NCBI RefSeq assembly: GCF_902859645.1
Contig: NZ_CADIJR010000037.1
Location: 1 to 62,241 of the forward strand
DNA: 62,241 nucleotides
Direction: 5' to 3'
Origin: Achromobacter insuavis
Lineage (GTDB): Bacteria > Pseudomonadota > Gammaproteobacteria > Burkholderiales > Burkholderiaceae_B
Shown here piece after piece: positions 11,839 through 20,728 of this stretch (the first letter of the stretch is position 1; each line of letters opens with the position of its first letter). The position numbers and the translations under genes were made by a program. The notes under the pieces are model-generated. The model was not told where the DNA came from. It saw only the letters and a list, made by a program, of their open reading frames with translations, and did not search any database.

Positions 11839-13311
11839 CTACGGCGCCGCCGGCAGGTCGAATTCGAACACCGCGCCCGGCTCGGGCCGCTGCACCAGAC
11901 GGATATCGCTGTGGTGCAGCTGCAGGATGCGGTGCACGATCACCAGCCCCAGGCCGCCGCCATCGCGCGGGCCGTTGGCCAGCACCGAGGCGCGGGTAAA
12001 CAGGCCCGCCCGCAACGCCTCGGGAATGCCGGCGCCGTTGTCGCTGACCCGCACCTGCACGCCGCCGCGCGCCTGCTCCAGGCTCAGCTCGATGCGGCCG
12101 CCCGGCGCGCTGTGGCGGATGGCGTTGTCCAGCAGGTTGGTCAGCACCCGCTCGATCATGCCCAGGTCGGCGCGCACCGGCGGCAGTTCCTGGTCAATCG
12201 CCGTGGTCAGCCGCTGCTGGCGCGCCTCGGCGGCCAGCTCGAATTTCTGAATCACGTCCTGCGCCAGCTCGGGCAGCGAGAAGGTCTCCGGCTCCAGCCG
12301 CACCAGCCCGGATTCCAGCCGCGCCAGCTCGAACAATTCCTGCGCCAGCCGGCCGACCTTGCGGCTCTGCGCCAGCGCGATGTCCAGATAGCGGCGGCGC
12401 TCGGCCGCGTCCAGCGTTTCGTCCTTGAGCCGCAGCGTTTCCAGATAGCCGTGCAGCGAGGTCAGCGGCGTGCGCAGGTCGTGCGAGATGTTCGCCACCA
12501 GGTCGCGCCGCTGTTGATCCTGGCGCGTCAGCTCGCGCCATTGCTCGGAGATGCGCCGGCCCATCTGCACGAAGCTGCGGCGCAGCAGCGAGATCTCGTC
12601 GCCGCTGGCGTCGGTGGCGTCGACCGGCTTTTCCAGCGCCGCCAGCGCGCGGCCGTCGTCGTCGCCGAAGGCCCGCACCGCGCGCGTCAGCCCGCGCAGC
12701 GGCCGCGTGATCAGGCCGAACGCCGCCAGGCCCGCCACCAGGCCCAGCAGGGCCACCAGCGCGATCGACCACAAGGTGGTGCGCAGCACCGCGCTGCGCG
12801 ACGCCGCCATGGCCAGCGCGTCGTGCGCCTCGCCCTGCAGCACCACGTAGACGTAACCTTCGTCGCGCCCGGCCACCCGCACCGGCGCGGCCGAGAACAC
12901 CTTGGCGGTATCCAGGTGGCGCGGATCGTCGCCCTCGATCGGCAGCGCCCCGCCCGCCAGGAAGCGGCGCACCGGCGCTAGGTCGACCCGCTCGCGCTTG
13001 ATCTGGCCGGGCGAGGCGGCGTCGCCGACGATGCGGCCGTCGTTGTCCAGCAGATAGACCTCGACCGCCGGATTCACCATCATCAGCATCGAGAACAGCG
13101 AGCGCACCGCGTCCGGCTTCCAGCCGTTGGCGTCCATCAGCTCGTTGGTGCCGGCGATGTGCTGCGCCAGGCCGCTGGACAGCCGCTGCACCACTTCCTG
13201 CTCGTAGCGCAGGTTGGCCGAGATCTGCAGCCAGGCCGAGGCGCCGCAGCAGGCCAGCAGCAGCATGGCGAACACGGCCGACAGGCGCTGGGTCAGGGTC
13301 AGGCGCTTCAT
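11839..13311 (-). CDS. Sensor histidine kinase
   Basis: 490 residues. Membrane segments at about 11-29 and 180-200 enclose a periplasmic sensor of about 150 residues. HAMP follows (about 200-255), then HisKA with the phospho-acceptor His277 in NISHDLRTPLTSLHGYLE, and a HATPase domain with N, G1 and G2 boxes (LLDNAIRHS, VSDNGAGIP, GGLGLVI). It overlaps its response regulator by ATGA. The pair is divergent from the periplasmic methionine-sulfoxide repair genes, an arrangement like HprRS (YedWV) beside msrPQ in E. coli. Sensing of oxidative or chlorine stress is therefore inferred, not shown. Confidence 0.9.
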   Translation of the reverse strand: MKRLTLTQRLSAVFAMLLLACCGASAWLQISANLRYEQEVVQRLSSGLAQHIAGTNELMDANGWKPDAVRSLFSMLMMVNPAVEVYLLDNDGRIVGDAASPGQIKRERVDLAPVRRFLAGGALPIEGDDPRHLDTAKVFSAAPVRVAGRDEGYVYVVLQGEAHDALAMAASRSAVLRTTLWSIALVALLGLVAGLAAFGLITRPLRGLTRAVRAFGDDDGRALAALEKPVDATDASGDEISLLRRSFVQMGRRISEQWRELTRQDQQRRDLVANISHDLRTPLTSLHGYLETLRLKDETLDAAERRRYLDIALAQSRKVGRLAQELFELARLESGLVRLEPETFSLPELAQDVIQKFELAAEARQQRLTTAIDQELPPVRADLGMIERVLTNLLDNAIRHSAPGGRIELSLEQARGGVQVRVSDNGAGIPEALRAGLFTRASVLANGPRDGGGLGLVIVHRILQLHHSDIRLVQRPEPGAVFEFDLPAAP

Positions 13312-14039
13312 GATGCGGACTCCGCCGGCGCGCCGGGTTCGGCCGCGAACTTGTAGCCGCGGCCCCAGACCGTCAGGATGCGCTGCGGATTGGACGGATC
13401 GGCCTCGATCTTGGTGCGCAGCCGGTTGATGTGGGTGTTGACCGTGTGCTCGTAGCCTTCGTGCTGGTAGCCCCAGACCTGGTTCAGCAGGTCGAGCCGC
13501 GAGAACACCTTGTCCGGGTTGCGGGCGAAGAAATGCAGCAGGTCGAACTCGCGCGGCGTCAGTTCCAGCCGGCGGTCGTCGACCGAGGCGGTGCGGGCGA
13601 TCGGGTCGATGGCCACGCCGTGCTGGCGCAGGCTGCCGGCGTCGATGCGGGCGTTGCGCTCCAGCGCCTCGGTGCGGCGCAGCAGCGCCCGCACCCGCGC
13701 CACCAGCTCCAGCATCGAGAACGGCTTGGCCAGGTAGTCGTCGGCGCCCAGTTCCAGCCCGAGGATGCGGTGCACCTCGCTGGAGCGGGCGCTGGTGATG
13801 ATGATGGGGGTGTAGCGCGTCATGGCGCGGGCGCGCTTGCAGATCTCCAGGCCGTCGATGCCGGGCAGCATCAGGTCCAGCACCAGGGCGTCCCAGCCGC
13901 CCTCTTCCAGCCGGCGCATGCCTTCGTTGCCGTCGGCCGCGTGCTCGACCGCATAGCCTTCGTCCCGCAGGTGCAGGCGCAGCAATTCGGCGATGTGGGC
14001 GTCGTCTTCGACGATCAGGACGCGGCGAGGCGTATCCAT
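13308..14039 (-). CDS. OmpR-family response regulator
   Basis: 243 residues from ATG 14039 (MDTPRRVLIVEDD). The receiver has the acidic pair Glu11/Asp12 and phosphorylation site Asp55 in LVLDLMLPG, with the conserved lysine in YLAKPF. The C-terminal winged helix includes LTPREFDLL, VFSRLDLLNQVWGY and RGYKF. It is co-translated with the histidine kinase gene. The first divergent gene across a 211-base gap is the cytochrome b561 of the sulfoxide-repair island, its most likely target. In-frame ATG upstream at 14138 would add an unrelated Pro/Arg-rich leader and was not used. Confidence 0.92.
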   Translation of the reverse strand: MDTPRRVLIVEDDAHIAELLRLHLRDEGYAVEHAADGNEGMRRLEEGGWDALVLDLMLPGIDGLEICKRARAMTRYTPIIITSARSSEVHRILGLELGADDYLAKPFSMLELVARVRALLRRTEALERNARIDAGSLRQHGVAIDPIARTASVDDRRLELTPREFDLLHFFARNPDKVFSRLDLLNQVWGYQHEGYEHTVNTHINRLRTKIEADPSNPQRILTVWGRGYKFAAEPGAPAESAS

Positions 14040-14250
14040 AGGGGCTCGGTCAGGGGTGGAAATCGGGGTAAGCCGACCGCCAGCGGCCGGCAACGCCGGG
14101 CGCGGGCGATCCGCCCCCGGCAGCGCTATTGTCGCCAATCCATGGCCGGCGAGTTATCACATTTATTTTAAGTTTGCGTGAGGACTTCGATATCGGCCCC
14201 GGGGAAGAATGGCTCCAACGACAACAACCGCCTCCCCGAGGAGCCCCGCC

Positions 14251-14889
14251 ATGATGGCCACGCCCGCCACCCCAGACGCCCCCGCCGCCCCGGCGCCCGA
14301 CAGCCGCGGCCCGGTCCATCCCGGCTGGCTGCGCATCGTGCATTGGCTCAATGCGCTGGCCGTGGTCATTATGGTGACCAGCGGCTGGCGCGTCTACAAC
14401 GCCGCGCCGTTCTTCGACTTCACCTTTCCCAACGGCGCCACCCTGGGCGGCTGGCTCGGCGGCGCGCTGCAATGGCACTTCGCCGGCATGTGGCTGCTGC
14501 TGGTCAACGGCCTGCTCTACCTGGGGCTGAACCTGACCACCGGCCGCCTGTGGCGCAAGTTCTTCCCGGTCGGCCCGCGCGGCGTCGCCCGCGACCTGGC
14601 CGCCGCCCTGAGCGGCAAGCTGTCGCACGCCGACCCGCGCCACTACAACCAGGTGCAGCGGCTGGCCTACCTGTTCGTCATCGCCGACATCACGGTGCTG
14701 GTCCTGTCGGGCCTGGTGCTGTGGAAGTCGGTGCAGTTCGACACGCTGCGCACGCTGCTGGGCGGCTATGAATTCGCGCGCCGCATCCATTTCTTCGCCA
14801 TGGCGCTGCTGGTGGCGTTCGTGGCGGTCCACCTGGTCATGGTGGCGCTGGTGCCGCGCAGCCTGATCGCCATGATCCGCGGCAAATAA
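14251..14889 (+). CDS. Cytochrome b561-type membrane subunit
   Basis: 212 residues from ATG 14251 (AGGAG at 14239-14243). Four membrane helices can be traced with histidines placed to bind two haems: HWLNALAVVIMV, WHFAGMWLLLVNGLLYL, a third near LFVIADITVLVLSGLVLW, and IHFFAMALLVAFVAVHLVM. It resembles the b-type cytochrome that passes quinol electrons to a periplasmic molybdoenzyme, the job MsrQ does for MsrP although MsrQ is a different fold. The molybdoenzyme gene follows 10 bases later, so the two form one reductase complex. Confidence 0.88.
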   Translation: MMATPATPDAPAAPAPDSRGPVHPGWLRIVHWLNALAVVIMVTSGWRVYNAAPFFDFTFPNGATLGGWLGGALQWHFAGMWLLLVNGLLYLGLNLTTGRLWRKFFPVGPRGVARDLAAALSGKLSHADPRHYNQVQRLAYLFVIADITVLVLSGLVLWKSVQFDTLRTLLGGYEFARRIHFFAMALLVAFVAVHLVMVALVPRSLIAMIRGK

Positions 14890-14899
14890 GGAGCCTCAC

Positions 14900-15691
14900 G
14901 TGAGCGCAAAACGACGCCTGTCGCTGCTGGGCCTGGACGGCCCCGCCATCCTGAAGGAAGCCGTGAAGATCCTGGACAAGCGGGTCGAGGCCCCCTCGCG
15001 CCGCGCCTTCCTGCGCAGCAGCCTGACGCTGGGCGGGCTGGCGATGCTGTCCGGCTGCACCCTGTCCGACGACGAAAACGTCGAAAAGGCGCTGACCGCG
15101 GTGTCGCGCTTCAACGACCGCGTGCAGGGCTGGATCTTCGACCCGAACAAGCTGGCCCCGACCTACCCGGAATCCATGATCACCCGCCCGTTCCCGTTCA
15201 ATGCCTACTACGGCATCGACGAGGTGCGGCAGGTCGAGGAAGAGAGTTTCCGGCTGGAAGTCACCGGCATGGTGACCGACAAGCGCCGCTGGCGGCTGGA
15301 CGAGCTGCGCGCCATGGCGCAGATCGACCAGGTCACGCGCCACATCTGCGTCGAGGGCTGGAGCGCCATCGGCAAGTGGGGCGGCGTGCCGTTCTCGACC
15401 TTTCTGAAGCGCGTGGGCGCCGACCTGACCGCGAAATACGTGGGCTTCAAGTGCGCCGACGACTACTACACCAGCATCGACATGCCCACCGCATTGCACC
15501 CGCAGACGATCCTGGCGCTGACCTACGACGGCAAGACCCTGCCGCCGGAGTACGGCTTCCCGATGAAGCTGCGGATGCCCACCAAGCTTGGCTACAAGAA
15601 CCCCAAGCACATCCAGGCGATTTTCGTCACCAACACCTACCCGGGCGGTTACTGGGAGGACCAGGGCTACAACTGGTTCGGCGGCAGCTAG
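14900..15691 (+). CDS. Tat-exported molybdopterin oxidoreductase, MsrP/YedY-like
   Basis: 263 residues from a GTG with AAGGAG six bases before it. A Tat signal SRRAFLRS (33-40) is followed by a hydrophobic stretch and a lipobox-like LSGC (Cys53), so it may be a lipoprotein or periplasmic. The oxidoreductase molybdopterin domain has the metal-ligand Cys150 in RHICVEGWSAIGKWGG. The protein is shorter than E. coli MsrP (334) and lacks the dimerisation domain of sulfite oxidases. MsrP-type enzymes reduce methionine sulfoxide in periplasmic proteins; the MrpP branch pairs with a Met-rich scavenger peptide, and such a peptide is encoded next. Confidence 0.85.
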   Translation: MSAKRRLSLLGLDGPAILKEAVKILDKRVEAPSRRAFLRSSLTLGGLAMLSGCTLSDDENVEKALTAVSRFNDRVQGWIFDPNKLAPTYPESMITRPFPFNAYYGIDEVRQVEEESFRLEVTGMVTDKRRWRLDELRAMAQIDQVTRHICVEGWSAIGKWGGVPFSTFLKRVGADLTAKYVGFKCADDYYTSIDMPTALHPQTILALTYDGKTLPPEYGFPMKLRMPTKLGYKNPKHIQAIFVTNTYPGGYWEDQGYNWFGGS

Positions 15692-15735
15692 GTGGCTTTT
15701 TCCCTTCCCACCACGACACACCAGAGGAACGCATC

Positions 15736-16080
15736 ATGAAGACACTCACCACCGCCGCATTCTCGCTTTGCCTGGCCTTTGGCGCGGTCGCCGCGCACGC
15801 GGCCGACGACATGTCCAAGGACGGCATGTCGAAGGACGGCATGGCCAAGAGCAGCATGTCGAAGGATGGCATGTCCAAGGATGGCATGTCCAAGGATGGC
15901 ATGGCGAAAGACGGCATGGCCAAGGACGGCATGTCGAAGAACTCCATGTCCAAGGACGCCATGTCGCACGACGGCATGAAGAAGGACGGCATGGCCAAGG
16001 ATGGCATGTCGAAGGACGGCATGTCGAAAGACGGCATGTCCAAGGGCGGCTCCATGAGCAAGGACAGCATGGGCAAGTAA
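15736..16080 (+). CDS. Exported methionine-rich MXKDX pentapeptide-repeat protein (MrpX-like)
   Basis: 114 residues with ribosome site AGAGGA (15723-15728). A signal peptide ends at AHA-ADD (about residue 22). The mature 92 residues consist of 18 tandem units based on MSKDG (variants MAKDG, MSHDG, MKKDG), giving 18 Met, about one in five, and no aromatic residue, cysteine or proline. It should be disordered and highly soluble. The composition and the place between a MsrP-like molybdoenzyme and exported MsrB/MsrA fit a sacrificial scavenger whose methionines are oxidised by hypochlorite or similar oxidants and then reduced again, as for MrpX of Azospira. That role is inference; NCBI-style naming is only 'pentapeptide MXKDX repeat protein'. 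Confidence 0.88.
   Translation: MKTLTTAAFSLCLAFGAVAAHAADDMSKDGMSKDGMAKSSMSKDGMSKDGMSKDGMAKDGMAKDGMSKNSMSKDAMSHDGMKKDGMAKDGMSKDGMSKDGMSKGGSMSKDSMGK
15811..16077 (+). repeat. 15-base tandem repeats coding for MSKDG units
   Basis: About 17 units of period 15 bases, core ATGTCGAAGGACGGC with synonymous changes (TCC/TCG, GAT/GAC), and one 18-base unit near the end. The synonymous divergence shows protein-level selection with DNA copies that can still slip. Because 15 is divisible by 3, all other frames stay open here, which makes false genes on both strands. Confidence 0.9.
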
Positions 16081-16152
16081 GCCCCCCGTTCAACGGCCCG
16101 CTGGCGCCGCCCCGGCCGCGCCGCGGGCGGCCCCTTCCAACAGGAGTTTCCG

Positions 16153-16656
16153 ATGAGACTGACACGCAGGCATTTCCTCGGCGCGGGCGGCGCCTTCGCG
16201 GCCGCCGCCGGCCTGGCCCCGCTGCTGGCCGGTCGCGGCGCGCGCGCCGCCCAGCCGCGGCCGGCCTATCCCTACACGTTGACCGACGCGCAGTGGCGCG
16301 CCAAGCTCAGCGCCGCGCAATACGACGTGCTGCGCCGCGAAGGCACCGAACGGCCCTACACCAGCCCGCTCAACGACGAACACCGCGCCGGCACCTTCGC
16401 CTGCGCCGGCTGCGCCCAGAAGCTGTTCGCGTCGACCACCAAGTTCGACAGCGGCACCGGCTGGCCCAGCTTCTGGCAGCCGCTGGAACACGCCGTCGAC
16501 ACGCTGGAAGACCGCAGCTTCGGCATGACCCGCACCGCCGTCAATTGCAGCAATTGCGGCGGCCACCTGGGCCACGTCTTCGATGACGGCCCGCGCCCGA
16601 CCGGACTGCGCTACTGCATGAACGGCGTGGCCATGAGTTTCACCCCGCAGGCCTGA
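16153..16656 (+). CDS. msrB: Exported peptide-methionine (R)-S-oxide reductase
   Basis: 167 residues. Tat-type signal TRRHFLGAGGAF at the N-terminus, cleaved near ARA-AQ. The MsrB fold follows: zinc cysteines Cys84/Cys87 (CAGC) and Cys132/Cys135 (CSNC), GTGWPSFWQP, GHVFDDGP and catalytic Cys155 in RYCMNG. No further cysteine is present, so it is a 1-Cys type needing an external reductant. Export places it with the molybdoenzyme and MsrA in the periplasm, where it reduces the R-epimer of methionine sulfoxide. It lies 72 bases after the Met-rich protein gene. Confidence 0.95.
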   Translation: MRLTRRHFLGAGGAFAAAAGLAPLLAGRGARAAQPRPAYPYTLTDAQWRAKLSAAQYDVLRREGTERPYTSPLNDEHRAGTFACAGCAQKLFASTTKFDSGTGWPSFWQPLEHAVDTLEDRSFGMTRTAVNCSNCGGHLGHVFDDGPRPTGLRYCMNGVAMSFTPQA

Positions 16657-16693
16657 TTGCGGCCCGCGTATTTTTTTCCGAGGATTGCGCATC

Positions 16694-17389
16694 ATGCCCC
16701 TTCGTCCCCTCTCCCGCGCCCGCCAGGCCGCGCTGGCCGCCGCCGGCGCCCTGTTCGCCCTCGGCACGGCCAGCGCCGCCGAGACCGCTTTCATCATCCC
16801 GCCGCCCGCGCTCGACGCGGCGGTCGGCGCGCCACAGGAAAAGGCCGTGATCGCCGGCGGCTGCTTCTGGGGCGTGCAGGCGGTGTTCCAGCACGTCAAG
16901 GGCGTCACCTCGGCGGTTTCCGGCTACGCCGGCGGCCAGGCCTCCACCGCCGACTACGACACCGTCAGCGGCGGCCGCAGCGGCCACGCCGAATCGGTGG
17001 AAATCACCTACGACCCCAGGCAGGTCAGCTATGGCCAGCTGCTGCAGATCTATTTCTCGGTGGCGCACGACCCGACCCAGCTCAACCGCCAGGGTCCGGA
17101 CAGCGGCACGCAGTACCGCTCGACGGTGTTCCCGGCCAATGACGACCAGCGCAAGGTGGCCGAGGCCTACATCGCCCAACTGAACAAGTCCGGCGTCTAC
17201 CCCAAGGCGCTGGCGACCACGGTCGAGCCGCTCAAGGGCTTCTACCCGGCCGAGGGCTATCACCAAGACTACCTGGTGCGGCACCCGTACAGCATGTACA
17301 TCATGGTGAACGACGCGCCCAAGGTCGAGAACCTGGCCAAGACCTTCCCGGCGACGTATCGCGACAAGCCGGTGCTGGTGAATCCGTAG
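16694..17389 (+). CDS. msrA: Exported peptide-methionine (S)-S-oxide reductase
   Basis: 231 residues from ATG 16694 (GAGGA at 16680-16684). A signal peptide (ALAAAGALFALGTASA-AE, about residues 12-29) precedes the MsrA domain with GGCFWG, catalytic Cys57, and HAESVEITYDP. Cys57 is the only cysteine in the protein, so it has no resolving cysteine. It handles the S-epimer of methionine sulfoxide and completes a set of three periplasmic repair enzymes in this operon. An in-frame TTG at 16685 is possible but less well placed. Confidence 0.95.
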   Translation: MPLRPLSRARQAALAAAGALFALGTASAAETAFIIPPPALDAAVGAPQEKAVIAGGCFWGVQAVFQHVKGVTSAVSGYAGGQASTADYDTVSGGRSGHAESVEITYDPRQVSYGQLLQIYFSVAHDPTQLNRQGPDSGTQYRSTVFPANDDQRKVAEAYIAQLNKSGVYPKALATTVEPLKGFYPAEGYHQDYLVRHPYSMYIMVNDAPKVENLAKTFPATYRDKPVLVNP

Positions 17390-17923
17390 ACAGCGGGTGA
17401 ATCCGCAGGCGGCTGGCGGACAGGGCTGTCGTTGGAGGCCGTCGGCGGGGCTTGCCGCGCCGGCGGCCGCACCACGCGCGGCCGCCGTTGCCGTTGCACG
17501 CCATGCAGCCGAGGACGCGCTGTCGCGATGGCCGTAAAAACGCGCGTCTTGACGTTTTTCCTCGGCGCCTCGATAAGCAGGATAAATAATCAAAACCGCG
17601 CCGATTCTTAAAATCGAAAATCAGCATTTATCGTGCCTGACAGATAATATCGAATGTATCAATTCACGCCATATTGATAATATGGACCGTATCCAAAACC
17701 CCAATAAAAACAATTGGTTGGTATCCAAAATGCTGAAATCCGGCGCCCCGGATGGTATCTTTCAGGCAGTTTTTTAATTTGCAAAAAAGCGGGTATAAAT
17801 TGCGTCCTTTTTCCACCGCCCACTCCAATCCATACAGAATATTTCAGCAAACGGAAACACGATTTCCGCTGGCGATTCTGCATGGCATCCGGACCGTGGG
17901 CCGAGACAAAAAGGACCCCAGTC
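17390..17923. other. Long AT-rich intergenic region before the autotransporter
   Basis: This 534-base gap has no supported gene. Its first 120 bases are GC-rich; from about 17570 it becomes sharply AT-rich, unlike the rest of the window. It holds an inverted repeat (17669-17685), a direct repeat GTATCCAAAA (17689-17698 and 17721-17730) and a TATAAAT that could be a -10 element near 17794. It is the probable promoter and control region of the autotransporter. Confidence 0.5.
17669..17685. promoter_or_regulatory. Inverted repeat, candidate operator of the autotransporter
   Basis: CCATATT-GAT-AATATGG is a perfect 7-base inverted repeat with a 3-base centre, about 240 bases before the autotransporter start and followed by two copies of GTATCCAAAA. 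The binding protein is unknown. Confidence 0.4.
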
Positions 17924-20728
17924 TTGAAATACGGCACCCACAAGTGGCTGACGGCCACGGTCGCATTGAGTACCTCCTGCGGCGCCGCGATGGCCGCCGA
18001 TCTGACGGTGGCGCCCGGCAACACGCAGGTGTTCGACGGCTCGGCCGCCTTCCCCGGCGGCGTTGACGTCAACGGCGGCACCCTGGTGGTCGGCGGCAAC
18101 GGCGGCGGCGCCGGCGTCACCCTCACCGGCAACGTCAACGCGGCCGCCAACGGCACCGTCTCGGGCTTCGGCGCCATCAACGGCAACCTCAACGTAACGG
18201 GCGCGCGCGTCGCCCCCGGTTACCCCGTCGGCACGCCGACCGGCGTGTCCAACGGCAACCTCGTCGTCCGGGGCGACCTGTCGATGAACAACGCCGTGTT
18301 CGATTTCGAGACCGGCTACGCCGGCCTGCCCATCACGCAGCCCGGCACCGGCGACAACATCACGGTCGGCGGCAACGTCGCGCTGAACAATACGACCCTG
18401 AACGTGTCGGTCAACACCCTGGGCACCAACGCCGGCTACTACCGCATCCTGTCGTACGGCGGCACCCTGAGCGGCAACGGCCTGACGCTGGGCGCCGTCA
18501 CCGGCGACTCGCAGCCCGCGGCGACCATCCAGTCGCTGACCGGCGACAAGCAGATCAACCTCATCCTCGGCCCGAGCACCACCAACCTGTGGAACGGCAA
18601 CGGCGCGGCGTCCGCCACGCGCGCCGGCGGCGGCAACGGCACCTGGAGCGCCGCCATCGGCAACTGGAACAGCCCCACCAACGCCACCGGCGCCCTGCCC
18701 GACGGCGGCTATGCCATCTTCACCGGCGCGGCCGGCACGGTCACCGTCGATGGCGGCGCCGGCCCGGTGCGCGTCTCGGGCATCCAGTTCGCCACCGACC
18801 GCTACACCGTGCAGGGCGCGCCCATCACCCTGGTCGGCAGCGGCGGCAACCCGCCGGCCCTGGTGGTCGGCGACGGCACCTACGCCTCGGGCCAATTCGT
18901 CGACACCATCCACAACTCGCTGCAGGGCACGCAGGGCTTCGTCAAGACCGGCCCGGGATCGCTGATCCTGACCGGCGACAGCAGCGGGCTGAGCGGCCCC
19001 ATCCTGATCGCCGACGGCGCGCTGGAAATCGACGGCAAGTTGAACGGCCCGGTCGATATCGGCCGCGAAGTCGTGCTGGCCGGCGTCGGCCAGCTGGGCA
19101 CCACCACGCTCTACCCCACCGCCGTGATCTCCCCGGGCAACGACGGCTCGCCCATCGGCACGCTGACGATCAACGGCAACCTGACCTTCGGCGCCGACAC
19201 CGTCTATCGCGTGCACGCCGATCCGGCCAGCAGCGCCAGCGACCGCATCCACGTCACCGGCGTGGCCGTGCTGGACGGCACGGTGGCGCACGTCGGCCCC
19301 GCCGGCAACTACGCGCCGCGCACCACCTACAACATCCTGACGGCCGACGGCGGCATCCAGGGCCGCTTCACCGGCGCCTCCAGCGCCTACGCCTTCCTGA
19401 CCCCCACGCTCAGCTACGACGCCAAGAACGCCTTCATGACGCTGACGCGCAACGACGTGCCGATCGGCAGCATTGGCGGCACCGGCAACGAAACCAGCGT
19501 CGGCGGCGCGCTGGACCAGGAAGATCCGCCCGCGAGCGGCAACGGCTCGGCCTCCAGCGGCAACGGCTCGGCCGCCAGCGGCAATGGCTCGACGACCGCC
19601 GGCAACGGCTCGTCCGTGGTCGGCAGCGGCAGCGCCGCGGCCGCCGGCACCGGCGCCCGCCAGGTGACGACGGCGGTGCTGACGATGACGCCCGACCAGG
19701 CCCGCTCGGCCCTGAAGCAGCTGTCCGGCGAGGCCTACGCCAGCACCGCCACCGTGCTGCAGAGCCAGGCCGACACCGTGCGCGCGCTGCCGCTCGACCA
19801 CCTGCGCGGCAACCTCGACGCGCCGGCGCGCGCCGGCCAGCCGACGGCCCAGCTGGGCTCGCCGTCGGGCGATGCGCTGCCGCAAAGCGGCGCCTCGCCG
19901 GTCTGGGCGCAGGTCTTCGGCAACTGGAGCACCTTCGCCGGCGACGGCAACGCCTCGAGCGTCAACCAATCGTCCGGCGGCCTGTTCGTCGGCGGCGATG
20001 GCGCGGTCGGCGGCGGCTGGCGCCTGGGCGGCGCGGTCGGCTACACCGGCAGCCACAGCTCGCTCACCGATTCCGCCTCGCGCACCGACGTCGACAGCTA
20101 CACCGCCTCGCTGTTCGGCGGCCGCAATTTCCAGGCCGGTCCCGGCCACATCCGCTTCATGGCCGGCGCCGCCTACACCTGGCACGACATCAACACCAAG
20201 CGCGACGTCGCGGCCGGCAGCCTGAACCAGCGCCTGGAGTCGTCCTACCGCGCCTCGTCGACGCAGCTGTTCAGCGAACTCGGCTACCACCTGCCGCTGA
20301 ACGATGCCTACAGCATCGAACCCTATGCCGGCCTGGCCTGGAACCAGCTGCGCACGCGTGATTTCGAGGAATCGGGCGGATCGGCCGCCCTGCGCGGCAA
20401 GGGCCGCACCGACGACGTGACCAGCAGCACGCTGGGCGTGCGCGGCGCCTGGCAGTTCGAGTCCAGCGGCGCGCCGGGCCGCCTGACCGCCTCGCTGGGC
20501 TGGCGCCACGCCATGGGCGACGTCACGCCCAGCCAGCAACTGGCCTTCGACGGCGGCAGCACGTTCTCGGTGCGCGGCGTGCCGATCGCCAAGAACGCCG
20601 CGGTGGTCGGGCTGGGCGCCGAAATCGCGCTCGCCCGCAACACCACCGCCGGCGTCGCCTATGACGCGCAGTTCGGCGGCGGCAACCGCCAGCAGTCGGG
20701 CCTGCTCAAGCTGGCCGTGCGCTTCTAG
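17924..20728 (+). CDS. Autotransporter with beta-strand-repeat passenger
   Basis: 934 residues from a TTG (AAGGA at 17911-17915, 8-base spacer) that gives the signal peptide KYGTHKWLTATVAL...AMA-AD. The passenger (about 25-580) is Gly/Asn-rich with autotransporter-associated beta-strand segments, for example FVKTGPGSLILTGDSSGLSG and GALEIDGKLNGPV, which form a right-handed helix. A Gly/Asn/Ser repeat linker (about 538-572) and an alpha-helical stretch precede the barrel (from about VWAQVFGNWSTF) that ends in LAVRF, the usual C-terminal aromatic for outer-membrane insertion. No protease motif is seen, so an adhesin-like role is likely. An alternative ATG at 17882 would lengthen the signal region. 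Confidence 0.88.
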   Translation: MKYGTHKWLTATVALSTSCGAAMAADLTVAPGNTQVFDGSAAFPGGVDVNGGTLVVGGNGGGAGVTLTGNVNAAANGTVSGFGAINGNLNVTGARVAPGYPVGTPTGVSNGNLVVRGDLSMNNAVFDFETGYAGLPITQPGTGDNITVGGNVALNNTTLNVSVNTLGTNAGYYRILSYGGTLSGNGLTLGAVTGDSQPAATIQSLTGDKQINLILGPSTTNLWNGNGAASATRAGGGNGTWSAAIGNWNSPTNATGALPDGGYAIFTGAAGTVTVDGGAGPVRVSGIQFATDRYTVQGAPITLVGSGGNPPALVVGDGTYASGQFVDTIHNSLQGTQGFVKTGPGSLILTGDSSGLSGPILIADGALEIDGKLNGPVDIGREVVLAGVGQLGTTTLYPTAVISPGNDGSPIGTLTINGNLTFGADTVYRVHADPASSASDRIHVTGVAVLDGTVAHVGPAGNYAPRTTYNILTADGGIQGRFTGASSAYAFLTPTLSYDAKNAFMTLTRNDVPIGSIGGTGNETSVGGALDQEDPPASGNGSASSGNGSAASGNGSTTAGNGSSVVGSGSAAAAGTGARQVTTAVLTMTPDQARSALKQLSGEAYASTATVLQSQADTVRALPLDHLRGNLDAPARAGQPTAQLGSPSGDALPQSGASPVWAQVFGNWSTFAGDGNASSVNQSSGGLFVGGDGAVGGGWRLGGAVGYTGSHSSLTDSASRTDVDSYTASLFGGRNFQAGPGHIRFMAGAAYTWHDINTKRDVAAGSLNQRLESSYRASSTQLFSELGYHLPLNDAYSIEPYAGLAWNQLRTRDFEESGGSAALRGKGRTDDVTSSTLGVRGAWQFESSGAPGRLTASLGWRHAMGDVTPSQQLAFDGGSTFSVRGVPIAKNAAVVGLGAEIALARNTTAGVAYDAQFGGGNRQQSGLLKLAVRF
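19535..19639 (+). repeat. 21-base tandem repeats in the autotransporter linker
   Basis: Five units of 21 bases coding for SGNGSAS-like heptapeptides (SGNGSAS, SGNGSAA, SGNGSTT, AGNGSSV, VGSGSAA). They lie between the passenger and the barrel as a flexible spacer, and could vary in copy number. Confidence 0.7.

What the first reader, a model, noticed from the sequence alone, without database searches (positions are those of the whole stretch)
11839..17389. Complete periplasmic methionine-oxidation buffer: Met-rich repeat protein with three sulfoxide repair enzymes and a two-component system
Seen in the sequence: a cytochrome b561, a Tat-exported MsrP/YedY-type molybdoenzyme, an exported 92-residue repeat protein with 18 Met in 18 pentapeptide units, an exported MsrB and an exported MsrA are consecutive on one strand, and a kinase/OmpR-regulator pair is divergent. 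Known: in Azospira the MrpX Met-rich peptide and MrpP (YedY-type) scavenge hypochlorite, controlled by SigF/NrsF; in E. coli HprRS controls msrPQ. Inference: this locus joins both designs, adds epimer-specific MsrA and MsrB, uses a b561 instead of MsrQ, and uses a MSKDG repeat as the sink. That combination could be an undescribed variant of chlorine or oxidant defence.
Basis: partly seen in the sequence, partly recalled or inferred. Interest (0 to 1): 0.82.

Follow-up and report, generated by a model that had tools for sequence, protein, structure and literature searches.

The report
Oxidant-sensing operon for periplasmic methionine repair
This bacterium carries a switch-controlled set of genes that puts a sacrificial methionine-rich protein outside the inner membrane together with three enzymes that could repair it after attack by oxidants; its core matches a system already studied in E. 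coli, but here it is joined to extra repair enzymes and shares one DNA switch with many other bacteria.

Summary
The genes are as described: a divergent kinase/regulator pair, then b561, a YedY-type molybdoenzyme, an MXKDX repeat protein, MsrB and MsrA. It is E. coli OrhK/OrhR, whose regulator switches on a b-type cytochrome, a YedY-like enzyme and a Met-rich peptide (PMC8550376). Window kinase, regulator, b561 and YedY are 46-62% identical to E. coli Orh-type proteins and share the divergent layout and a 35-bp operator (14151-14185) overlapping the inverted repeat proposed there. New here: (1) The operator marks a small regulon. Of 24 searched genomes with kinase and module apart, 21 have exactly two sites, one at each; of nine such kinase loci read further, eight have the operator facing exported msrB and msrA. 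Achromobacter joins both sets in one operon. (2) b561 is not MsrQ; the YedY-like enzyme is a predicted Tat lipoprotein below the MsrP cut-off. (3) Elsewhere the same module sits beside an ECF sigma factor, mostly with NrsF. (4) The sensor has one invariant periplasmic Met (70 of 70). I rate it a new variant of a known kind. Function here is inferred, not shown.

The parts
11839..13311 (-). OrhK-type sensor histidine kinase; PAS-like periplasmic domain (model); invariant Met77; Cys pair in TM1
13308..14039 (-). OrhR-type OmpR-family response regulator
14151..14185 (+). conserved operator, TTATCAC-N17-GTGA core; one copy in the window and one in the whole genome
14205..14210 (+). -10-like box (AAGAAT) aligned with the CATAAT of E. 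coli at the same distance from the operator; tentative
14254..14889 (+). cytochrome b561 (PF01292), likely quinol-oxidising membrane partner; not MsrQ
14900..15691 (+). YedY-type molybdoenzyme, predicted Tat lipoprotein (R34 R35, lipobox Cys53), Mo-ligand Cys150
15736..16080 (+). exported MXKDX pentapeptide repeat protein (MrpX/C3568-like), 18 Met besides the start Met
16153..16656 (+). exported MsrB (Tat-like signal, read from sequence), two CXXC pairs plus one catalytic Cys
16694..17389 (+). exported MsrA (signal read from sequence), single (catalytic) Cys

Best explanation
The locus is an Orh-type operon for periplasmic methionine redox buffering and repair. The kinase detects envelope oxidants (peroxide and/or hypochlorite), perhaps through an invariant periplasmic Met, and phosphorylates the regulator. 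The regulator binds the operator at 14151-14185 and switches on b561-YedY-MXKDX-msrB-msrA. The MXKDX protein takes up oxidant as methionine sulfoxide. A membrane-tethered molybdoenzyme fed by b561 from the quinol pool, and thiol-dependent MsrA and MsrB, reduce it again and repair other envelope proteins. Shown here by sequence: parts, conservation, operator, operator-kinase co-occurrence, linkage. Shown by others in E. coli: binding and activation by OrhR, and peroxide protection by C3566/C3567. Inferred: sink function in this organism, electron path, sensing residue, signal.
For: E. coli Orh-type plasmid locus with the same divergent order and 57/60/46/62% identity for b561/YedY/HK/RR; CFT073 OrhK, OrhR and C3567 46, 57 and 56%. 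Operator unique in window and genome; of 99 b561 upstream regions 57 score 27 bits or more, the other 42 at most -4.7, shuffled maximum -4.0. Operator without linked kinase: kinase ortholog elsewhere in 29 of 29 loci; module without operator: 3 of 40 (one genome counted twice among the 40). In 46 chosen genomes the whole-genome scan finds two sites in 21 of 24 split genomes, one in the other 3 and in 21 of 22 with linked kinase; reversed-pattern control 2 hits. Operator beside 31 of 32 unlinked kinases, facing msrB in 8 of 9 examined. MXKDX beside 77 of 80 YedY relatives. 108 repeat regions (106 distinct): 20% Met, no Trp or Tyr, Cys in 2, His in 48, Phe in 3.
Against: No functional data for this organism. 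In the E. coli paper peroxide phenotypes in the section read are for C3566/C3567, not for the Met-rich peptide. In UPEC the signal is peroxide, in Azospira and Brucella hypochlorite. Achromobacter's operon lacks the DsbD-like thioredoxin found between msrB and msrA in 6 of 8 split loci, so the electron donor of the one-Cys MsrA/MsrB is unknown here. The lipobox has Asp at +2 in only 1 of 105 relatives, so inner-membrane retention near b561 is not assured. Three genomes have the kinase but a module without operator. Related genomes are not independent: regulator type needs about three changes on the YedY tree. Many modules elsewhere have neither operator nor ECF factor nearby (20 of 40 operator-less loci).
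Confidence: 0.75

Rival explanations
1. A copper/silver stress operon: the Met-rich protein binds Cu(I)/Ag(I) and the kinase is a metal sensor.
For: The sensor model matches, weakly, the silver-bound CusS sensor domain among other PAS-like domains; Met-rich periplasmic proteins often bind Cu(I) (general knowledge).
Against: No copper gene in the operon itself; other neighbourhoods were not scanned for copper genes. Met spacing of five with Lys and Asp between is unlike the close-spaced Met motifs of Cu(I) sites (general knowledge). The linked enzymes are two kinds of Msr and an MsrP-like molybdoenzyme. OrhKR responds to peroxide (PMC8550376).
Confidence: 0.08
2. The YedY-like enzyme reduces a small S- or N-oxide, or another substrate, rather than protein methionine sulfoxide; the repeat protein is a chaperone-like or structural partner.
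For: Only 26% identity to MsrP and 83 of the 207 bits required; lipoprotein form and b561 partner differ from MsrP.
Against: 77 of 80 relatives have the Met-rich gene beside them; best fold match is MsrP/YedY; one operator joins it to msrB/msrA.
Confidence: 0.12
3. It is an MsrPQ/HprRS system proper with an added peptide.
Against: MsrP model not met, b561 has no detectable similarity to MsrQ (E = 1.6; PF01292 v. PF01794), HprS 24% and HprR 35%.
Confidence: 0.02
4. Neighbouring genes without a shared function.
For: Gene content around the module varies: msrA or msrB within 5 kb in 25 of 80, linked regulator in 25 of 80.
Against: Shared operator in fused and split arrangements and conservation over genera.
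Confidence: 0.03

Closest known systems
OrhK/OrhR - c3566-c3567-c3568 of uropathogenic E. coli CFT073 (PMC8550376)
   Same: Divergent TCS, b-type cytochrome, YedY-like molybdoenzyme, Met-rich peptide, and the operator overlapping the inverted repeat proposed there; HK, RR and YedY 46-57% identical
   Different: In E. coli haemolysin genes follow the operon (paper) and no msrB/msrA is described there; the paper likens the partners to MsrP/MsrQ, but the cytochrome of the VR50 copy is a b561
SigF/NrsF - YedY1 - MrpX of Azospira suillum PS (Melnyk 2015; paper not held, seen only as described in PMC4623255, PMC5748585, PMC8315932)
   Same: Periplasmic Met-rich peptide plus YedY-type reductase for hypochlorite
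   Different: ECF sigma/anti-sigma control; YedZ named as partner; its sequences were not compared here
BcrS/AbcS - BcrXQP of Brucella melitensis (PMC8315932, passages)
   Same: MXKDX protein plus Mo reductase system, HOCl-induced
   Different: ECF control, partners described as MsrQP homologues; the word msrA does not occur in the main text
Perchlorate islands with MrpX, YedYZ and exported MsrA/MsrB (PMC4623255, passages)
   Same: Met-rich peptide with molybdo- and thiol-type Msr together
   Different: Islands of perchlorate reducers; SigF/NrsF control
HprRS - MsrPQ of E. coli K-12
   Same: TCS-controlled periplasmic Met repair; HprS senses through periplasmic Met (as told in PMC10151825)
   Different: Distant proteins, MsrQ instead of b561; no Met-rich peptide gene annotated beside msrPQ

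Membership tests
OrhKR system | Divergent orthologous HK/RR next to b-type cytochrome, YedY-like enzyme and Met-rich peptide | tested here: met
OrhKR system | RR-binding inverted repeat upstream of the cytochrome gene | tested here: met
   Sequence conserved; binding itself shown only in E. coli
OrhKR system | Induction by peroxide and protection | not testable with these tools
   Needs experiment
TIGR02953 MXKDX / MrpX-type peptide | Score above family cut-off, signal peptide | tested here: met
   (105 v. 41 bits); signal read from sequence
MrpX | Sacrificial oxidation and enzymatic regeneration | not testable with these tools
   Inferred from composition and linkage
MsrP (NF003767) | Equivalog score of at least 207 bits | tested here: not met
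   83.2 bits; K-12 MsrP scores 504
MsrP/sulfite oxidase superfamily | PF00174 fold and Mo-ligand Cys | tested here: met
   which Cys binds Mo in MsrP is recalled
MsrQ | PF01794 ferric-reductase-like domain | tested here: not met
SigF/NrsF-controlled MrpX system | ECF sigma and NrsF anti-sigma linked to the module | tested here: not met
   No match in the window and in 0 of 59 operator-bearing loci, queries being the ECF/NrsF proteins of the operator-less loci
MsrA / MsrB | Family score and catalytic Cys | tested here: met

The most novel reading that the evidence does not exclude
A self-contained methionine-redox circuit spread through beta- and gammaproteobacteria: one kinase that itself reads methionine oxidation (invariant periplasmic Met, Cys in TM1) and one operator drive a disposable Met repeat protein plus two independent recycling arms, one powered by quinol (b561 and a lipoprotein molybdoenzyme) and one by thiols (one-Cys MsrA/MsrB, in some lineages with a DsbD-like thioredoxin). 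Lineages split or fuse the arms and can swap the regulator for SigF/NrsF while keeping the circuit.
Probability: 0.35. Interest if true: 0.65.

Novelty: new variant of a known kind. Interest (0 to 1): 0.5.

Why it matters
It ties separately published pieces (MrpX-type sinks, Orh control, exported MsrA/MsrB) into one regulon with a sequence-defined operator, so target genes can be predicted by motif search. It suggests that the E. coli Orh system is one member of a widespread family rather than something specific to a pathotype. It also points to b561, not MsrQ, as the electron partner and offers a concrete sensing residue to test.

Tried and rejected
HprRS/MsrPQ and SigF/NrsF as the parent system: rejected on family scores, identities and linkage. 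An extended regulon in the own genome: the strict operator pattern with up to 3 mismatches gives a single site. A first operator regex used the wrong spacing (14-16) and found nothing; corrected to 17. A DsbD-like partner for MsrA/MsrB in the own genome: only a partial hit to the thioredoxin part, with a stop in the frame, so no partner is named. The predicted YedY-like structure has modest confidence (pLDDT 71.8) and the sensor model 79.1; both are used only for fold level. Inner-membrane retention of the YedY lipoprotein: residue +2 gave no support. Library searches for an earlier account of the combined operon (all ten allowed) listed no account of it; the library lacks most subscription journals, and the Azospira and HprS papers were not held.

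Limits of counts: the 80 YedY relatives are the best 80 of 542, so linkage there is biased to close kin. The matrix was built from 28 of the 30 loci with a linked TCS plus E. coli, leaving out each scored sequence; the 27 hits without linked TCS are the out-of-sample ones. The 46 genomes were chosen because they have the kinase, and most of their sites were already known; what the scan adds is that it found almost no others. Of 15 below-cut-off MXKDX genomes I fetched 9. One over-cut-off locus (L143) was not recognised by my repeat finder and was centred by position; L128 lies near a contig end, so its YedY could be cut off. b561 was called in 99 loci against 105 for YedY; the rest dropped out of the operator count, and two of the 99 (L097, L123) are one genome. 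A first Cys count held duplicates and a slicing fault; the de-duplicated one is used. In the genus, 33 of 43 genomes have the strict operator beside the module, judged by coordinates (two further pattern hits, in G425 and G427, lie on other contigs). Of the other ten I fetched eight: seven have a weaker operator with the TCS-b561-YedY-msrB-msrA layout and one lacks TCS and operator; two incomplete genomes (G423, G429) were not examined.
Full report
What is there. The window (G000:C37 of a 6.8-Mb genome; nearest named YedY relatives are Achromobacter at 97-98% identity) holds, in order, a sensor kinase and an OmpR-type regulator on the minus strand, then on the plus strand b561, a YedY-type molybdoenzyme, an MXKDX repeat protein, MsrB and MsrA. 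The repeat protein has 18 Met besides the start Met, 16 of them in one unbroken five-residue register.

The YedY-like protein carries a twin-arginine motif followed by a lipobox. The lipobox Cys is present in 105 of 105 relatives and a twin-arginine pattern was matched in 99 of 105. It scores 83 bits against the MsrP model, whose cut-off is 207; K-12 MsrP scores 504. Its Cys150 aligns with the Cys of MsrP that binds Mo (alignment; the role of that Cys is recalled) and its best fold match is MsrP. The b561 belongs to PF01292 and shows no detectable similarity to MsrQ (E = 1.6; MsrQ is PF01794). Among distinct relatives at 48% identity or more, 48 of 49 exported-type MsrA have a single Cys, and 48 of 50 MsrB have five, so most lack a resolving Cys and need an outside thiol (inference). 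Window MsrA and MsrB are closer to the kinase-linked Pseudomonas enzymes (57-59%) than to the other copies in the own genome (43 and 52%; copies found).

The closest known system. PMC8550376 (abstract, the sections on the TCS, the operon and peroxide resistance, and the discussion read) describes OrhK/OrhR of uropathogenic E. coli, which directly activates c3566 (cytochrome B), c3567 and c3568 (Met-rich peptide) in response to peroxide. An E. coli plasmid copy has the same divergent layout with 46% (HK), 62% (RR), 57% (b561) and 60% (YedY) identity; its Met-rich peptide scores 36 bits, a little under the MXKDX cut-off of 41. CFT073 OrhK, OrhR and C3567 are 46, 57 and 56% identical to the window proteins, against 24, 35 and 26% for HprS, HprR and MsrP. 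A Met-rich peptide with YedYZ and exported MsrA/MsrB was also described in perchlorate islands (PMC4623255, passages), and MXKDX with MsrQP homologues under an ECF factor in Brucella (PMC8315932, passages). So neither half of the combination is unheard of.

The operator. The region between regulator and b561 holds GAGTTATCACATTTATTTTAAGTTTGCGTGAGGAC at 14151-14185. The same element lies at the same place in E. coli. In CFT073 it contains the TCACA-N15-TGTGA repeat proposed by the authors, who showed that the regulator binds the promoter fragment. The core ATCAC-N17-GTGA occurs upstream of b561 in 50 of 99 loci, and at no other spacing from 6 to 29 in any. A position matrix separates the loci cleanly: 57 score 27 bits or more, including 30 of 30 with linked kinase, and 42 score -4.7 or less; the shuffled maximum is -4.0. 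Two more (L054, L083) have the site a little further upstream. A -10-like box lies at a fixed distance behind it.

A two-part regulon. Twenty-nine loci carry the operator without a linked kinase. In the genomes of 29 of 29 an orthologous kinase (60-62% identity) is found elsewhere, against 3 of 40 tested loci whose module lacks the operator (two of the 40 are one genome). In 31 of 32 of the unlinked kinase loci a second operator lies beside the regulator. Of nine that I fetched in full, eight have it facing exported msrB with msrA behind, and in six of the eight a DsbD/thioredoxin-like protein lies between them; the ninth (L202) has neither operator nor msr genes there. In 46 chosen genomes the operator pattern gives two sites in 21 of 24 split genomes, one by the kinase and one by the module; one site in the other three, whose modules lack it; one in 21 of 22 genomes with linked kinase and none in the last (G352, whose operator is divergent). 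The reversed-pattern control gives 2 hits in all. The Achromobacter window thus has both target sets fused behind one operator. In the genus, 40 of 43 genomes have the operator beside the module, counting seven weaker ones.

Another regulator for the same module. Of 40 operator-less loci, 20 have an ECF sigma factor within 5 kb, 17 of them also NrsF (PF06532), and 20 have neither; of 59 operator loci none has (the queries came from the operator-less loci). On the YedY tree these two states need three changes (22 if 'neither' is counted as a state), so the exclusion rests on few events and the genomes are not independent. The split genomes are mostly one Pseudomonas group, plus a Bordetella (G445) and a few others of the order (G133, G255, G285).

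Linkage of the repeat protein. Of 31 over-cut-off MXKDX loci from 399 genomes of the order (window left out), 24 lie beside YedY and b561, 12 within 5 kb of msrA or msrB, and 4 beside neither. Of nine fetched below-cut-off loci, one lies beside YedY and b561, three near msr genes and five near neither. Of 80 YedY relatives 77 have MXKDX beside them; of the three without, one ends at a contig edge. The 108 repeat regions (106 distinct) are 25% Lys, 20% Met, 17% Asp, with no Trp or Tyr, Cys in 2, Phe in 3 and His in 48: Met is the main oxidant-reactive residue, which fits a sink.

The sensor. The periplasmic domain is modelled as a PAS-like fold (pLDDT 79; weak matches to several kinase sensors including CusS). 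One Met, residue 77, is invariant in 70 of 70 kinases including two from E. coli, and a Cys lies in or near TM1 (aa 11-32) in 69 of 70. HprS is reported to sense through two periplasmic Met with a transmembrane Cys needed for signalling (PMC10151825, passage). The parallel is suggestive only: 22 other sensor residues are equally invariant.

How it most likely works. Oxidant at the envelope activates the kinase; the regulator binds the operator; the operon makes the Met sink and two recycling arms, quinol-powered and thiol-powered. Steps shown by sequence or by others are named above; sink function, electron path, substrate and signal in this organism are inferred.

Verdict. New here are the shared operator joining molybdo- and thiol-type repair, the b561/lipoprotein anatomy, the breadth of the family and the regulator exchange. 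The library searches listed no account of that regulon; the library lacks much subscription literature.

Noticed in passing
L038 / L246 (Achromobacter pulmonis LMG 26696): About 2.4 kb is absent between homologues of window 11890 and 14278: nearly all of the kinase, the regulator, the operator and the very start of b561, leaving the rest of b561 and YedY-MXKDX-msrB-msrA. A natural loss of control, or an assembly fault.
   Followed up: partly
L158, L242 (E. coli CFT073): The record flags the b-type cytochrome gene of the Orh operon as frameshifted, though the paper reports phenotypes for its deletion.
   Followed up: no
plasmid collection: The YedY-like protein (tblastn E up to 1e-50) is encoded on 134 plasmid records, 77 of them predicted conjugative, mainly Escherichia, Paraburkholderia, Klebsiella and Rahnella. 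A close match to the VR50 operon is in 73 of 5426 E. coli genomes, 72 over most of its length, all on plasmids (that search does not reach the more distant CFT073 type).
   Followed up: partly
17714-20728 (+): 1004-aa autotransporter (PF03797 beta-domain) downstream of msrA, with an AT-rich gap before it.
   Followed up: no
G285 (L129, L173, L202): Has a kinase ortholog but no operator beside it; its only pattern match is elsewhere with two mismatches, and its module has a different gene order.
   Followed up: no
L043: Two tandem copies of b561-YedY-MXKDX-msrB-msrA in Bordetella genomosp. 2; real duplication or contig artefact not checked.
   Followed up: no
L137, L139, L150 (and L128, near a contig end): MXKDX-type genes near msrA/msrB without YedY or b561, which suggests that thiol Msr alone can serve the repeat protein.
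   Followed up: no
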